Source of the DNA: Micromonospora parva
GTDB taxonomy: Bacteria > Actinomycetota > Actinomycetes > Mycobacteriales > Micromonosporaceae
Direction: 5' to 3'
Assembly: GCF_000718515.1 (NCBI RefSeq)
Contig: NZ_JNZS01000008.1
Coordinates: 1-64,000 of the forward strand
DNA: 64,000 bases
Shown here: positions 56,212-61,653 of the stretch, one piece after another
Numbering within the stretch: the stretch's first letter is position 1
Layout of the letters: each line of letters begins with the position of its first letter
Notes under the pieces: model-generated
What the model was told of the DNA's origin: nothing
What the model saw: only the letters and a program-made list of their open reading frames with translations
Databases searched by the model: none
Translations under genes and position numbers: made by a program

Positions 56212-58692
56212 CTACCTCTTGGCGATCTTGATCGTCGCCGTCCGGTAGTTGTTGCGCCTGTCGTTCTTCGTCGGGTCGTAGTTCTTCTCGATGTTGCCGG
56301 CGCTGTCCACCGAGAACCAGCGGAACGTCGTCGTCTCGGTCACGTGGAACACCTGCCCCGGCTCCCGGAACTCGGTGGCCGCGTAGCGCGGCGACTGGAG
56401 CGTGGGCCGGCTGCCGTCGGTCGTGTAGTAGATGGTGGCCGGCTCGCTCGTCTCGAAGCGTACGTCCACCGGCCCGCGGTAGGTCCCTGCGCCGGGAACG
56501 AGCTGCGATGTCGGGTTCTTCCTGTCCCGTCCCCAGTCCGCCGCCACCCGGAACATCTCCATGATCCCGTTGGCGTACTCCATCGTCTCGGCGTGGCCGC
56601 TGACCAGCTCGGGGTTGCCCGCCCACTCCGGCTGGAACGAACCGCCCTGCCAGTCGCCGGTGGCCGGGTTGTAGACGGAGCCGCCGACCTCCCAGCCGAA
56701 GGCGTAGATCCCGTAGGTGTAGTACAGGTCCTCGCGCACGTTGCCCGCGGAGGAGTAGAGGACGTCGGACGAGCCGCCGACGTTCTCCGGCGTGACGACC
56801 GTCTCCCGGTGCGCCTTGACCTGCGACAGGATCCGGGAGGCCGACTGCCAGTAGAACGCCTCGTCGCCCAGCGGCGGGCGCGGCGTGGTGATCCGCCCGT
56901 CCGCGATGTACGCACCGGGCTGCCAGAACAGCTGCCCGCCGTTGGAGTGCACGGACATCATGAACTTGATGTTCGAGTACTTCTCGACCAGCCAGATGAT
57001 GTTCTTCGACTCCGGCTCGGACAGCTCCTCCGGCCCCTGGTAGGTGCCGCTGACGCAGTTGGTCGACCCTCCCGCGTAGCCGTCGTGGCCCGACCCGACC
57101 CGGTAGTTCCGGTTCAGGTCGACGCCCCAGGAGTTCCGCTGCCCCGGGTCGGCGGTCGCGTTCGGGCAGTGGTTCGTCATGTTCTTCCGCTGGGAGGCGA
57201 AGTTGTAGAAGCTGTAGTTCGCCCCGTCGGGGTTGTTGGAGAGGATGAAGAAGACGTCGGTGTTCTCGACGATCTTCTTCGTCTCCCGGTCGGACCGGTA
57301 GTTGTGCACCAGGCGCTCGGCCGACTCCAGGCTGGTCGTCGCCGGCACCCACTCGCGGGCGTGGTCCTGCGCCTGGATGAGAACGCCGGGCTTGCTGCCG
57401 TCACGGTGCTTGCCGATCCGCAGGACGGGGATGGTGACCGGGCCCCGCGGCACCTCACCGTCCGGTGCGCCGACGCGCTTCTGGTCGAGGAAGTCGGTCA
57501 ACGCGACCGGGCCGGCCGTCGCCGCGACGATGCCGGTGCCCGCGTTGGTGCGGTACGGGTGCGCCCGGTCGATGAGGCCCTGGGACCGGGTCATCAGCGC
57601 GTCCGCGACCTGGGTGGCCGTACTCGCCGGAGCGCCGGAGGCGTCGGTGCCGAGCAGGACGCGGACCGCCTTGCCCGCGACCTCCACGGTGAGCGGGAGG
57701 TCCGCCCCCGGCCGGTCCACGAACTCGACAGTGACGTCGTTGCCACCCTCGTGGCCCCACGCCGCCGAGCTGACCACGACTGCCGACTGACCCGTACCGC
57801 CGATCGTGGCCTGCGCCTTGCGCTGGTAGCCGTTGGTCTGGTTCGGGAGGTAGACGATTTCGGCGATGTCCGGGTACTGGCGGGCGATCTCCTTCGCGCG
57901 GCTGTAGAGCTGCTGCGGGTGCCGGTAGCCGTCCACGAAGTCGGACTTGTAGGACGGGTTCGCCGTCAGCGGCGGCGGAGCGTCCTCAAGCCAGTCGGAG
58001 ACCGTGCCGGTGGCGACGCCGCCGGTTGAGCTCGTGACCCGGATCTGGTTCGGGCGCGCGTCGAGCTTGAACAGGTTGCGGTGGAACATGTACTGCCCCG
58101 AGTCGACGAAGCGGCTCATCGTCCGGGCGAAGCCGAACGGCGTGGCCCTGCCCGAGTCGTTCTCGAGCTGCATCTCGACGACCGGTTCGGCCTGCTGCCC
58201 CTCCGTGGTGCGCGCCTCGACGTAGAGGAAGCCCTGGCCCTTGGTGGTGAACCAGTCGGCACGGGCGATCCGTACCGTCGCCTCGTGGCTGGCCGGTTGC
58301 GCCACCCGCGCGGCAGCGCCCGCGATGCCGCCATCGGCCTCGTCACTCCAGCCGAACCCGACGCCATCGCGGAGGACCTCGACGCCCATCGCCGTCAGTT
58401 CGATGATCTGCTCGGCGGTGACCACCGCCTCGCCCTCGATGCCGGTCGGCACGCGCCGGAGGCCGTGTTCGAGGTCGAAGCCGGCAGCGACGACCTTGTC
58501 CAGCATGTCGGCGCCGGCCAGCTTGACGTGTACGCGGCGTACCTGGTCCACGGTCTCAAGCTGGGATGGCGCGGAGCCGGCCGTGGCGGTCGGACCCGCG
58601 GGATCCGCACCCGCTGGCCCGGTCGACACGAGGACGCCCGCCATCAGGGCGGGCAGCACCACAAACGCGATGCGCCGTTGTCTGCGTCGCAT
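56212..58692 (-). CDS. Secreted M14-family zinc carboxypeptidase
   Basis: An exported 826-residue metallopeptidase from ATG 58692 with GGAGGGG upstream. Signal peptide about 1-29 (cleavage near AGA-DP). A propeptide-like N-terminal region precedes the M14 domain. Zinc ligands are His and Glu in IQAQDHAREWVPATTSLESA and His in MMSVHSNGGQLFWQPGAY; the catalytic Glu is in AFGWEVGGSVYNP. The last 110 residues are a chitobiase-like/Ig domain (RFETSEPATIYYTTDGSRPT). It trims C-terminal residues from peptides or cell-wall peptides outside the cell. No protease inhibitor or partner gene is adjacent. Confidence 0.92.
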   Translation of the reverse strand: MRRRQRRIAFVVLPALMAGVLVSTGPAGADPAGPTATAGSAPSQLETVDQVRRVHVKLAGADMLDKVVAAGFDLEHGLRRVPTGIEGEAVVTAEQIIELTAMGVEVLRDGVGFGWSDEADGGIAGAAARVAQPASHEATVRIARADWFTTKGQGFLYVEARTTEGQQAEPVVEMQLENDSGRATPFGFARTMSRFVDSGQYMFHRNLFKLDARPNQIRVTSSTGGVATGTVSDWLEDAPPPLTANPSYKSDFVDGYRHPQQLYSRAKEIARQYPDIAEIVYLPNQTNGYQRKAQATIGGTGQSAVVVSSAAWGHEGGNDVTVEFVDRPGADLPLTVEVAGKAVRVLLGTDASGAPASTATQVADALMTRSQGLIDRAHPYRTNAGTGIVAATAGPVALTDFLDQKRVGAPDGEVPRGPVTIPVLRIGKHRDGSKPGVLIQAQDHAREWVPATTSLESAERLVHNYRSDRETKKIVENTDVFFILSNNPDGANYSFYNFASQRKNMTNHCPNATADPGQRNSWGVDLNRNYRVGSGHDGYAGGSTNCVSGTYQGPEELSEPESKNIIWLVEKYSNIKFMMSVHSNGGQLFWQPGAYIADGRITTPRPPLGDEAFYWQSASRILSQVKAHRETVVTPENVGGSSDVLYSSAGNVREDLYYTYGIYAFGWEVGGSVYNPATGDWQGGSFQPEWAGNPELVSGHAETMEYANGIMEMFRVAADWGRDRKNPTSQLVPGAGTYRGPVDVRFETSEPATIYYTTDGSRPTLQSPRYAATEFREPGQVFHVTETTTFRWFSVDSAGNIEKNYDPTKNDRRNNYRTATIKIAKR

Positions 58693-58965
58693 TATCCCCT
58701 CCTTCGTGTTCACACTGATCCACATAGGACGGACGGATGACGCTCGCGCATCCTGGGTCTGAGCACGGGTGATGGTTGGCGTGGCGAGAAGGTCCGGGGC
58801 CCTGCGCGAGTCCGGTGAGCGTATGCGGATCTTCATCGGCATCGGCCGGGATCAACGTAATTTGAGCATTACTTGAGGCATCGCGGGTGCCTGCGGTCGC
58901 CCGCCTTCGCCCAGCCCCGGCGACCACCCGTGGTTGATCCGCCGCCGGCCGGGTAGCTGAACACC

Positions 58966-59436
58966 ATGCGACTACCGACCCTCGTCAAGACCGCGGCGGC
59001 GGTCACCGTCACGGCCGCCGCCGGGACAGCGGTGAACGACACCTCCAACGGCTGGTACCGGCGGCTGCGCAAGCCGAGCTGGCAGCCACCGCCGGTGGCG
59101 TTCCCGTTGGCGTGGACGCCGCTGTACGCGTTGATCGCGGTGGCCGGCGCCCGCGTACTGGACCGCACCGACGGTGCCGATCGCGCCGCCTTCACCCGCG
59201 CCTACGCGCTCAACCTGGCTCTCAACTTCGGCTGGAGCGCGTTGTTCTTCAAGGCCCGCAGGCCCACCGTCGCGCTGGCCGAGATCGCCGCCCTCAACGC
59301 CTCGAACTTCGCGCTCGTCCGCCGCGCCTCCCGCGTCGACCCGGTCGCGGGTGCCGCGCTGGCCCCGTACGCCGCGTGGACGCTCTTCGCCACCGCGCTC
59401 AACGGCGCCATCGTCCGCCTCAACAGCACCAGGTGA
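58966..59436 (+). CDS. TspO/MBR family membrane protein
   Basis: A 156-residue five-helix protein. The TspO hallmark GWYRRLRKPSWQPPPVAFPL followed by WTPLYALIAVAGARV, then LNLALNFGWSALFFKARRPT and APYAAWTLFATALNGAIVRL, is complete. Bacterial TspO binds tetrapyrroles and takes part in stress signalling or their degradation. It is divergent from the M14 gene; no tetrapyrrole gene is adjacent. It is followed 76 bp downstream by the sigma/CAP fusion gene, which may be in the same transcript. Confidence 0.92.
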   Translation: MRLPTLVKTAAAVTVTAAAGTAVNDTSNGWYRRLRKPSWQPPPVAFPLAWTPLYALIAVAGARVLDRTDGADRAAFTRAYALNLALNFGWSALFFKARRPTVALAEIAALNASNFALVRRASRVDPVAGAALAPYAAWTLFATALNGAIVRLNSTR

Positions 59437-59512
59437 CAGCTCAGTTTGTGTGACCTGAGCGGGCCGCAACCCATCTCCACGGTGTACGACGATGTCCCGT
59501 GAAGGCGAGGTT

Positions 59513-61054
59513 GTGAGCGTGACCTATCACGCGTACCCGAACAGAACCGACCTGTCGGCGGTGGTGGACGCGGCCCGCCGCGGTGACCACGCCGCGACTG
59601 ACGAGTTGGTCTCGCACTACCTGCCACTGGTGTACAACATCGTGGGACGGGCACTGAATCGATCCGCGGACGTCGACGACGTCGTGCAGAACACGATGTT
59701 GAGCGTCGTACGAGGGCTGGCGGGCGTACGCGATCCGCGGCTCTTCCGGTCCTGGCTGGTCGCCGTCACCATGAACGAGGTCCGCGCCTACCGGCAGCAC
59801 CGGCACACCACACCGACGCCGCCGGAGGACATCGACAACATGGTCGCCCCGGGTTCGGACTTCGAGGATCTGACCCTGACCCAGCTGCGCCTGTCCGATC
59901 AGCGCCGGGAGGTCGTCCTGGCCACGCGCTGGCTGGACGACGACCACCGCCACCTGCTCTCCCTGTGGTGGCTGGTCGAGGCCGGTCACCTGTCCCGCGC
60001 CGACCTGGTCGACGCGCTGCAGATCGACCCGCACCACGTGACCGTCCGCGTGGCCCGGATGAAGGCGCAGTTGGACACCGCTCGGCTGGTGGTGCGGGCC
60101 CTCATCGCCCGGCCCGGCTGCGCCGGCCTCCTCGACACGGCCGCCGACTGGGACGGTCAACCGGCGCCGGTGTGGCGCAAGCGGCTCGCACGCCACATCC
60201 GCGACTGCACGTACTGCCCGAACACCACCTCGGACCTGGTTCCCGCCGAGCGGCTGCTCGCCGGCCTCGCGCTCACGCCGGTCCCGGCCCGCCTCGCGTC
60301 GGACGTCTCCCACCAGGTCCAGCTCGTCGCCTCCTCGCAGGGCGCCACATCGGCAGGCGCGTACGCGAAGGCCGGGATGGTGCCCAAGGCCCGCCTCACG
60401 GCACTGTCGCTCCCCAAGACCCTGGTCGGCGCCGTCGCGGCCGTCGCCCTGGTAGCAGGGGGCGGGCTCGTCCTCACCACCTACGCCGACGGGCCGACGA
60501 AACAGCCGGCGAGCGCCGCAGCCGCCGAGCCCTCGGCGCAGGTCACCGACGCCGCCCCCGAGCCGAGCGAACCTGCTGTCGAGTCGCCCTCCCCCACAGC
60601 GCCCGTACCCTCCCCGAGCGCCGCACGCCCGAGCCCCACCCCCAGCAGATCGGCGACGCCGACGCGTACCTCGTCACCGACGCCGAGCAGGCCGGCCAGG
60701 AAGTCGACCGCCGCCCTGCCGGCCGGTGTGTCCGCCGCCGAACAACGCCTCCTGGTGCTGCTCAACGAGCGACGCCGCGCGCTCGGGCTGCCCGAGGTCA
60801 AGATGCGCACCAACGAGCAGGACGCCGCGGAGACCTGCGTGAAGCAGAACCTGGACGCGGGCACCTTCACGCACTGCGGGCACGAGGTCCTGTTCGCGTC
60901 GTCGGGCAACTCCTCGCCCGAGCAGATGATCGAGGCCTGGTTCAACAGTCCCGGCCACAAGACGGCACTGACCTACGCCAGCTCCCGCTTCGCCGGCCCC
61001 GCCATCGTCTCCAACGGCACCCGCCAGATCGCCGCCATCAACATCGACTACTGA
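59513..61054 (+). CDS. Sigma-70-like factor fused to zinc anti-sigma motif, membrane helix and CAP domain
   Basis: One 513-residue polypeptide (GTG 59513, after AAGGCGAGG; ATG 59492 is an alternative) with five parts. Sigma region 2: about 15-100 (LPLVYNIVGRALNRSADVDD, LFRSWLVAVTMNEVRAYRQH). Region 4-like: about 145-200 (DLVDALQIDPHHVTVRVARM). Zinc anti-sigma motif HxxxCxxC near 227 (RHIRDCTYCPNTT). Membrane helix: about 300-325 (TLVGAVAAVALVAGGGLVLT). A Ser/Thr/Pro-rich stalk follows. The extracellular CAP/SCP domain is at about 405-513 (LLVLLNERRRALGLPEVKMR, HCGHEVLF, EAWFNSPGHKTALTYA). No separate anti-sigma gene is adjacent. It may be a self-inhibited, membrane-tethered sigma factor released by proteolysis (inference). 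Confidence 0.88.
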   Translation: MSVTYHAYPNRTDLSAVVDAARRGDHAATDELVSHYLPLVYNIVGRALNRSADVDDVVQNTMLSVVRGLAGVRDPRLFRSWLVAVTMNEVRAYRQHRHTTPTPPEDIDNMVAPGSDFEDLTLTQLRLSDQRREVVLATRWLDDDHRHLLSLWWLVEAGHLSRADLVDALQIDPHHVTVRVARMKAQLDTARLVVRALIARPGCAGLLDTAADWDGQPAPVWRKRLARHIRDCTYCPNTTSDLVPAERLLAGLALTPVPARLASDVSHQVQLVASSQGATSAGAYAKAGMVPKARLTALSLPKTLVGAVAAVALVAGGGLVLTTYADGPTKQPASAAAAEPSAQVTDAAPEPSEPAVESPSPTAPVPSPSAARPSPTPSRSATPTRTSSPTPSRPARKSTAALPAGVSAAEQRLLVLLNERRRALGLPEVKMRTNEQDAAETCVKQNLDAGTFTHCGHEVLFASSGNSSPEQMIEAWFNSPGHKTALTYASSRFAGPAIVSNGTRQIAAINIDY

Positions 61055-61095: not shown

Positions 61096-61653
61096 CTACG
61101 CCCCACCCCCGACAGGTGGCATCGGCCGCACTGACGCCTCGGCGGCCAGCCGCGCCGCCAACCGTTCATCGAGGTACGCGGCCACCCGCGCATCCTCGGC
61201 CGGGGCCAGCGTCGTCCGGCACAGGTACCGCGGCTGCTGGTCCGCGCAGTCCAGGCGGTACGCCTCCCGCATCCGAACGGCGTGCCTGATCGCCGTCCAC
61301 GGCAACCGCAACGCCGCATGAGCGGTGTGCCACTCGATGGCCTCCGCGGTGAACACGTACCGCACCGGCGCGCTCAACTCGGCGTGACGTCGCAGGTACG
61401 CCGAGCCGTTGATCAGCCCCGCGATGCACCAGACCGCCCCGAACGGGACGCCGAACAGCCCCGCCAGGAGCCACCCGCCGTCGGCCGTGAACGTACCGAG
61501 GCTCGTGATCGACAACAGCAGACCCGAGATGACGAACAACCAGCTCATCCGCCGCAGATCCCGTCGCAGCAACCGCGTGAACCGGACGTCGGGAGTGACG
61601 AGCAGGTCGAACCCGCCCCGGAATCCTCCCTCGTTGAGCCTCACGTCGCTCAC
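61096..61653 (-). CDS. YcxB-like membrane protein
   Basis: A 185-residue protein with two membrane helices (residues 37-55 SWLFVISGLLLSITSLGTF, and 60-82 WLLAGLFGVPFGAVWCIAGL). The C-terminal domain (about 97-165) is like the YcxB C-domain: RYVFTAEAIEWHTAHAALRL, PWTAIRHAVRMREAY. The first 30 residues are cytoplasmic (MSDVRLNEGGFRGGFDLLVT, then VRFTRLLRRDLRR). Function unknown. It is convergent with the sigma/CAP gene and divergent from the transglutaminase-like gene. Confidence 0.82.
   Translation of the reverse strand: MSDVRLNEGGFRGGFDLLVTPDVRFTRLLRRDLRRMSWLFVISGLLLSITSLGTFTADGGWLLAGLFGVPFGAVWCIAGLINGSAYLRRHAELSAPVRYVFTAEAIEWHTAHAALRLPWTAIRHAVRMREAYRLDCADQQPRYLCRTTLAPAEDARVAAYLDERLAARLAAEASVRPMPPVGGGA

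What the first reader, a model, noticed from the sequence alone, without database searches (positions are those of the whole stretch)
59513..61054. Sigma factor, anti-sigma zinc motif, membrane helix and extracellular CAP domain in one protein
Seen: sigma region 2 and region 4-like sequence, HxxxCxxC, one hydrophobic helix, a Ser/Thr/Pro stalk and a CAP/SCP domain in order along one frame with uniform codon bias. Known: sigma and RsiW/RskA-type anti-sigma proteins are normally separate, with the zinc motif on the anti-sigma. Inference: a self-inhibited, membrane-tethered transcription factor with an outside sensor, needing proteolysis to free the sigma part. CAP domains could sense lipids, wall fragments or peptides.
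Basis: partly seen in the sequence, partly recalled or inferred. Interest (0 to 1): 0.78.

Follow-up and report, generated by a model that had tools for sequence, protein, structure and literature searches.

The report
One-piece sigma factor with outside sensor
A soil actinobacterium carries a gene switch, its likely built-in brake, a membrane anchor and an outside CAP domain in one protein, one of a family of similar one-piece switches with different outside parts.

Summary
The ORF at 59513-61054 is a 513-residue ECF sigma factor followed in frame by a zinc anti-sigma-like domain, one membrane helix, a Ser/Thr/Pro stalk and a CAP domain. It is one conserved gene, not a frameshift.

The idea is not new: actinobacterial ECF52/53 sigma factors with fused zinc domain, membrane helix and outer domain are in print. 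What this work adds: (1) the same sigma-zinc module carries six Pfam-named outer-domain types (CAP, glycosyl-hydrolase core, AbfB, beta-helix, Lcl_C, ricin-type lectin) and unnamed ones, up to seven copies per genome. (2) 86 of 132 family genes have an ECF-type promoter (GTDAYC-16/17-RTCYCC) just upstream, against about 0.002 expected per gene. (3) For the Micromonospora CAP type the exact promoter lies before the gene in 12 of 12 genomes, with two other exact sites in all, which suggests autoregulation. (4) The zinc site is a complete CHCC set; the CAP pocket residues are kept.

Best reading: a membrane-tethered, self-inhibited sigma factor freed by signal-dependent proteolysis. Inhibition, release, ligand and output genes are inferred, not shown. 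ECF53 membership could not be tested.

The parts
59445..59455 (+). -35 element TTTGTGTGACC
   Evidence: TTTGTGTGACC in 12 of 12 upstream regions except the first base or two outside it; once per genome in 4 of 4 genomes searched
59473..59478 (+). -10-like element ATCTCC, 17 nt after GTGACC
59502..59510 (+). ribosome-binding-site-like AAGGCGAGG
   Evidence: identical in 12 of 12
59513..61054 (+). gene for the 513-residue sigma/anti-sigma/TM/CAP protein, start GTG
59552..59809 (+). sigma region 2 (residues 14-99)
   Evidence: Pfam, model and fold match
59891..60106 (+). divergent sigma region 4 (residues 127-198)
   Evidence: TIGR02937 span, model helices; no Pfam region-4 hit
60119..60217 (+). 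CHCC zinc site, residues 203-235, anti-sigma-like
   Evidence: C203, H228, C232, C235 in 108 of 108
60245..60337 (+). two helices after the zinc site (residues 245-275), candidate anti-sigma helix 4
   Evidence: model; role inferred from PMC7406223 passages
60422..60478 (+). membrane helix, residues 304-322
   Evidence: hydropathy
60488..60724 (+). Ser/Thr/Pro-rich stalk, residues 326-404
   Evidence: sequence; low pLDDT; dN/dS 0.45-0.86
60725..61051 (+). CAP domain, residues 405-513

Best explanation
A one-piece ECF sigma factor with its anti-sigma factor. The sigma part (region 2, divergent region 4) is held inactive at the inner face of the membrane by the fused CHCC zinc domain and the helices after it. 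The CAP domain, held outside on a Ser/Thr/Pro stalk, is the exchangeable sensor. A signal outside triggers cleavage near the membrane, then of the membrane helix by a site-2 protease, and probably trimming of the zinc domain, which frees the sigma factor. It then reads TGTGACC-N17-RTCTCC, first of all before its own gene, so that activation amplifies itself. Shown by comparison: architecture, conservation, zinc ligands, CAP pocket, the conserved upstream element. Inferred: self-inhibition, proteolysis, ligand binding, and that this sigma factor reads this promoter.
For: Sigma70_r2 and CAP together in 43 of 43 members scanned; HxxxCxxC in 121 of 121 sequences, two of which are the window protein. 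Outer domains vary on one sigma-zinc module, as expected of sensors. ECF-type promoter before 86 of 132 family genes against 5 background hits in 718,446 nt, and 12 of 12 for the Micromonospora CAP type. dN/dS in five comparisons: sigma2 0-0.30, sigma4 0-0.29, zinc domain 0.18-0.33, CAP 0.18-0.39. M50 protease genes are in the genome, as in all 14 control genomes. For the ECF52 protein SCO4117, expression of SCO4117 was activated in a strain with a truncated gene lacking zinc finger, TM and outer module, and a protease model is proposed (PMC5826349, passages); the fused IutY needs proteolysis (PMC8999054 section).
Against: No direct evidence of inhibition, cleavage, promoter binding or ligand. 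The test of the known anti-sigma contacts (helix 1-sigma4, helix 4-sigma2) by sequence coupling was not significant (Fisher p 0.23-0.50, unstable in 10 subsamples). The model has pTM 0.38, so domain packing cannot be read. Pfam sees neither region 4 nor zf-HC2 in this protein. The promoter pattern was not found before 12 of 12 AbfB-type, 8 of 9 beta-helix-type, 8 of 55 glycosyl-hydrolase-type and 10 of 27 Streptomyces-type CAP genes. Short relatives without outer domain exist: 115 new hits of 135-430 aa, 32 of them labelled partial, some on long contigs.
Confidence: 0.66

Rival explanations
1. Conformational rather than proteolytic switch: the protein stays whole; ligand binding or wall tension on the CAP domain loosens the zinc domain, and the tethered sigma factor works from the membrane.
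For: I recognised no protease site in the sequence (no tool for it was run); TM and stalk are loosely constrained, dN/dS 0.45-0.92. Conformational change is named as an alternative for ECF52 (PMC5826349 passage).
Against: The only fused case worked out by experiment according to the review, IutY, needs proteolysis (PMC8999054 section). A tethered sigma factor would have to reach polymerase and promoter at the membrane.
Confidence: 0.15
2. The zinc domain is the sensor (redox or zinc) and the CAP domain only an anchor or wall module.
For: The four ligands are invariant in 108 sequences; cytoplasmic zinc anti-sigmas often sense redox (PMC7406223 passage).
Against: About 48% of membrane-bound class I anti-sigmas carry the motif, and a structural role is proposed (PMC7406223 passage). 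CAP is about as constrained as the zinc domain, and outer domains differ while the motif stays.
Confidence: 0.1
3. Degenerate sigma factor: region 4 no longer binds DNA and the protein is a wall-bound CAP protein with a leftover sigma-like part.
For: No Pfam region-4 hit for this protein.
Against: Region 4 has dN/dS 0-0.29 and invariant positions; TIGR02937 spans it; ECF-type promoter upstream.
Confidence: 0.05

Closest known systems
ECF52 sigma factors, SCO4117 of Streptomyces coelicolor (PMC5826349, abstract and passages read)
   Same: ECF sigma, zinc finger, TM, proline-rich stretch and outer carbohydrate-binding domain in one protein; Actinobacteria; own expression activated by the truncated sigma form.
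   Different: Outer domain is a carbohydrate-binding module, here CAP. Of five sigma-zinc-NPCBM proteins found in Streptomyces genomes, three score 13-16 bits with this family's sigma-zinc profile and two were not reported at E<=1.
ECF53 and ECF48 groups with fused anti-sigma (PMC8999054 section read; PMC10766802 passages read)
   Same: Fused zinc domain and one or two TM helices; some ECF52/53 proteins are said to carry glycosyl-hydrolase catalytic or carbohydrate-binding domains, as the paralogue in this genome does.
   Different: CAP is not mentioned in the passages seen. Defining papers and reference sequence are not held, so membership is untested; ECF53 is my guess for this family.
IutY (ECF243), fused sigma/anti-sigma of Pseudomonas putida (PMC8999054 section read)
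   Same: C-terminal fused membrane-bound anti-sigma; activation by regulated proteolysis.
   Different: Iron-starvation cell-surface signalling; its sequence was not compared here.
SigI/RsgI of Clostridium thermocellum (PMC12203970, PMC6056542: abstract starts in search listing; PMC10766802 passages)
   Same: Several paralogous sigma systems that sense different substrates outside; RseP cuts in the membrane helix.
   Different: Sigma and anti-sigma are separate proteins; no sequence comparison made here.
CAP proteins GAPR-1 (1smb), Pry1 (5jys), Bacillus SCP protein (4ifa)
   Different: As far as the entries listed show, not joined to a sigma factor.

Membership tests
ECF (group 4) sigma factor | region 2 | tested here: met
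ECF (group 4) sigma factor | region 4 with HTH | tested here: inconclusive
   TIGR02937 spans it over its cut-off; helices modelled; no Pfam region-4 match.
ECF (group 4) sigma factor | ECF-type promoter before its own gene (common, not universal) | tested here: met
   12 of 12 orthologues; 86 of 132 family genes. Binding not tested.
Class I zinc anti-sigma domain | Hx3Cx2C motif with an upstream H or C ligand | tested here: met
   C203, H228, C232, C235 in 108 of 108. That RsiW has the CHCC form is recalled.
Class I zinc anti-sigma domain | match to a curated anti-sigma or zf-HC2 profile | tested here: inconclusive
   NF052375 21.4 bits, E 2e-4, under its cut-off 100; zf-HC2 in 1 of 43 members, weak.
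Class I zinc anti-sigma domain | helix 1 binds sigma4, helix 4 binds sigma2 | tested here: inconclusive
   Coupling analysis not significant; model packing not readable.
ECF52 | outer carbohydrate-binding domain | tested here: not met
   Outer domain is CAP.
ECF52 | sequence group of SCO4117 | tested here: inconclusive
   Sigma-zinc-NPCBM proteins of Streptomyces score 16 bits at best with this family's profile and sit on a branch of 6.9 changes per column; SCO4117 itself was not at hand.
ECF53 | sequence group of WP_030276194.1 | not testable with these tools
   Reference sequence and defining papers not held.
CAP superfamily | CAP fold | tested here: met
CAP superfamily | pocket residues His, Glu, Glu, His | tested here: met
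   H454 49/52, E458 52/52, E470 52/52, H482 52/52 among sequences with the short CAP form. Which residues form the tetrad is recalled from GAPR-1, and the match of E458 is by eye.
Sigma systems activated by regulated intramembrane proteolysis | stepwise cleavage of the tethered protein | not testable with these tools
   M50 genes are present, but also in 14 of 14 control genomes.

The most novel reading that the evidence does not exclude
In the CAP branch of Micromonospora and one genome of a second genus the sigma factor has one main target: its own gene. The protein would be regulator and product at once: a signal on the CAP domain frees sigma, sigma makes more of the same CAP protein, and the surface fills with CAP domains: a closed, self-amplifying display switch rather than a classical regulon controller. 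For: the exact site is at the own gene in 12 of 12 genomes, with 2 exact sites elsewhere. Against: with one mismatch allowed there are 125 sites in the 12 genomes against 42 for the reversed control, so degenerate targets may hide there.
Probability: 0.12. Interest if true: 0.75.

Novelty: new variant of a known kind. Interest (0 to 1): 0.5.

Why it matters
It points to a series of one-piece outside-to-gene switches in which the same kind of sigma and brake is joined to different outer domains, several per genome, with a promoter that can be read off the DNA. That makes an open question directly testable: how a sigma factor with its own anti-sigma attached is switched on, and what each outer domain senses. 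The promoter gives a ready reporter, and exchange of outer domains a way to build sensors in actinobacteria.

Tried and rejected
Frameshift or assembly artefact: rejected. Orthologues in single-contig genomes (G415, G499, G413, G453) keep one frame, and sigma, zinc and CAP parts are each under purifying selection.

Coevolution evidence for the sigma/anti-sigma contacts: a first listing looked suggestive (N42-P244, V85-V243, V135-A211) but counts and subsamples did not bear it out; not used.

The VIA-align list covers mainly residues 12-103 and 403-513; no solved zinc anti-sigma fold was listed for the zinc part, which shows nothing.

Regulon search: of 13 sites checked with a simple open-frame rule (12 with one mismatch or in other genomes' exact set), one lay within 200 nt before a frame: a one-mismatch site before a lipoyl-synthase-like frame in G415. 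Not used as evidence.

ECF53 membership: not testable. Literature: 'cap domain' with sigma factor, ECF and anti-sigma gave 0 papers. Searches with 'cysteine-rich secretory protein' and with 'SCP domain' / 'CAP superfamily' showed 0 occurrences of these terms in the 12 papers listed each (of 479 and 249 that held three of the terms). One search, with the bare word 'cap', listed 15 of 36 papers and was not read further. TGTTATC with sigma factor, Streptomyces and promoter gave 0 papers. The library holds open-licence papers only.

Sampling limits: the 132 proteins are not a random sample: the best-scoring loci of each search plus most other rows of the genus and class searches; four genus rows (in G501, G469, G417, G481) were not fetched, and of the family search only the 30 best rows had loci. 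Identical modules were counted once. L148, split over two frames, was left out of the outer-domain and promoter counts. In one search the zinc and TM columns are wrong through a column slip of mine; one search gives the right zinc count (29 of 30). In the tree the NPCBM rows sit on a very long branch and the bootstrap had not settled.

Full report
What is there. The frame 59513-61054 encodes 513 residues. GTG 59513 is the likely start: GTGAAGGCGAGGTT before it is identical in 12 of 12 upstream regions compared, one of which has ATG at this codon; the upstream ATG 59492 is kept in 5 of 12. In order: sigma region 2 (Pfam 44.7 bits, cut-off 24); a divergent region 4 (inside the TIGR02937 match, 63.7 bits, cut-off 42.9; no Pfam region-4 match); a zinc site C203-x24-H228-x3-C232-x2-C235 (each 108 of 108); one hydrophobic helix at 304-322; a Ser/Thr/Pro stalk; a CAP domain (24.5 bits, cut-off 21.1; one orthologue, L075, scores 17.3, under the cut-off). 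GC3 is 0.86-0.95 in all six parts measured.

It is one gene. 3786 proteins reach E<=1e-3 among 7995 scored candidates; 120 are listed, and the rest were not seen. HxxxCxxC is in 121 of 121 sequences, two being the window protein. All 43 members of alignment A1 match both Sigma70_r2 and CAP at E<=0.1. Against five orthologues dN/dS is 0-0.30 for sigma region 2, 0-0.29 for linker and region 4, 0.18-0.33 for the zinc domain, 0.18-0.39 for CAP, and 0.45-0.92 for membrane part and stalk. A query of residues 1-247, which by the tool's length rule admits only proteins of about 136-432 residues, gave 120 hits, with a gap from 1.9e-22 to 5.4e-6 where generic sigma factors begin. Of the 115 new ones before that gap 96 have HxxxCxxC and 32 are labelled partial; some unlabelled ones lie on long contigs, so short forms without an outer domain do exist. 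A free-standing sigma factor close to this one, with a separate anti-sigma, was not seen, but neighbours of the short forms were not examined.

Spread. With residues 1-272 at E<=1e-25, matches were found in 10 of 396 genomes of the phylum, 35 of 394 of the class, 157 of 250 of the family and 57 of 121 of the genus, the own genome included each time. The genus is Micromonospora by the names of the nearest proteins. Only 8 of the 121 genus genomes hold a copy with 81% identity or more. The own genome has one further close member, at C4:347486-348586, with a glycosyl-hydrolase core outside (PF11790, E 8.2e-44).

Outer domains are exchangeable. Among 132 classified proteins (131 loci and the window) the outer part falls, by BLAST clustering with Pfam run on representatives, into glycosyl-hydrolase core 55, CAP 39, AbfB 12, beta-helix 9, a group without Pfam match in the four scanned 8, two singletons, and 7 cut or broken. 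Five copy-rich genomes gave 32 matches and 30 loci, 29 with the zinc motif, and further outer types: Lcl_C, ricin-type lectin, a DUF4185-like domain just under its cut-off (38.5, cut-off 39.5), and some without a Pfam name. Two of these genomes hold seven copies each. On a tree of the sigma-zinc module (128 rows) the outer-domain label needs 10 changes, where 6 is the least possible and shuffles average 63.0: outer domains are exchanged, but rarely. Whether the Micromonospora and Streptomyces-type CAP branches had one origin is open (CAP is one side of a branch in 32% of 200 bootstrap trees).

A family promoter. Upstream of the 12 Micromonospora-type CAP genes the DNA diverges except around TTTGTGTGACC, 17 nt, RTCTCC, and the stretch down to the start. 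The general form GTDAYC, 16 or 17 nt, RTCYCC lies in the 250 nt before (or first 30 nt of) 86 of 132 family genes: glycosyl-hydrolase 47 of 55, Micromonospora-type CAP 12 of 12, Streptomyces-type CAP 17 of 27, unnamed group 6 of 8, beta-helix 1 of 9, AbfB 0 of 12, singletons 0 of 2, cut or broken 3 of 7. Background in the same loci is 5 hits in 718,446 nt, 0.002 per 280 nt. I drew the pattern from these same genes, and related genes are not independent, so the count is descriptive; the excess is nonetheless large. The -35 words are GTTATC 43, GTAATC 30, GTGACC 12, GTAACC 1. In the own genome GTGTGACC-N16-18-RTCTCC occurs once, here, and TGTAATC-N16-GTCTCC once exactly, before the paralogue, with four one-mismatch sites and none for the reversed control. 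In the 12 genomes the exact CAP-type site is at the own gene in 12, with 2 exact sites elsewhere; with one mismatch allowed there are 125 sites against 42 for the reversed control, so weaker targets may exist. The 11-base -35 occurs once in each of the 4 genomes searched, at this gene. My inference: the CAP type is autoregulated, its strict regulon is very narrow, and the two paralogues of this genome are insulated by different -35 words.

How it likely works. By what is known of class I anti-sigma domains (PMC7406223, passages) and of the fused IutY and SCO4117 (PMC8999054 section; PMC5826349 passages), the zinc domain should hold sigma silent at the membrane until an outer signal triggers proteolysis. 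M50 protease genes exist in this genome, as in all 14 control genomes. None of these steps is shown here for this protein.

Known or new. The kind is known: ECF48, ECF52 and ECF53 are described as sigma factors fused to zinc anti-sigma and membrane parts, some ECF52/53 with glycosyl-hydrolase or carbohydrate-binding domains (PMC8999054 section; PMC10766802 passages). Of five sigma-zinc-NPCBM proteins of Streptomyces, the SCO4117 plan, three score 13-16 bits with this family's profile and two were not reported at E<=1, so this is probably not ECF52; ECF53 is my guess but could not be tested. No paper in the library joined 'CAP domain' with ECF, sigma factor and anti-sigma. The CAP variant, the range of outer domains and the family promoter are what I would call new here, with the caution that the defining papers (Huang 2015, Pinto 2019, Casas-Pastor 2021, known to me by recall and citation only) could not be read.

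Noticed in passing
window 58966-59436 (+): TspO/MBR gene (139.2 bits) ends 8 nt before the -35 element; among 12 orthologous loci compared by tblastn it was found next to the sigma gene in L021 and L072 only, but most of these loci hold only about 1.5 kb upstream.
   Followed up: partly
window 56212-58842 (-): M14 zinc carboxypeptidase with a C-terminal chitobiase-like domain, divergent from the TspO gene.
   Followed up: no
window 61096-61653 (-): 185-aa frame without Pfam match, convergent with the sigma gene.
   Followed up: no
L015, L019, L020, L113, L133, L136, L137, L139: Outer-domain cluster of the same sigma family with no Pfam outer-domain match in the four scanned (L015, L019, L113, L133); possibly an undescribed sensor domain.
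   Followed up: partly
L037:1489-3255 (+) and L129:480-2240 (+): Two further outer domains without Pfam match; L037 looks lysozyme- or transglycosylase-like by eye only.
   Followed up: no
L148 (G701 contig 77): A family member lies in two overlapping frames; left as it is.
   Followed up: no
L194 position 1547: TGTGACC-N17-GTGTCC 76 nt before a frame that looks like lipoyl synthase by eye, in G415; similar one-mismatch sites in G456, G413, G453 and G1048: a possible second target.
   Followed up: partly
P0146 and P0006 (Micromonospora sp. NPDC005298): A 241-aa hypothetical protein 87% identical to 57% of the sigma module, on a contig of the same length as that of a full-length member; perhaps a partial duplicate.
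   Followed up: no
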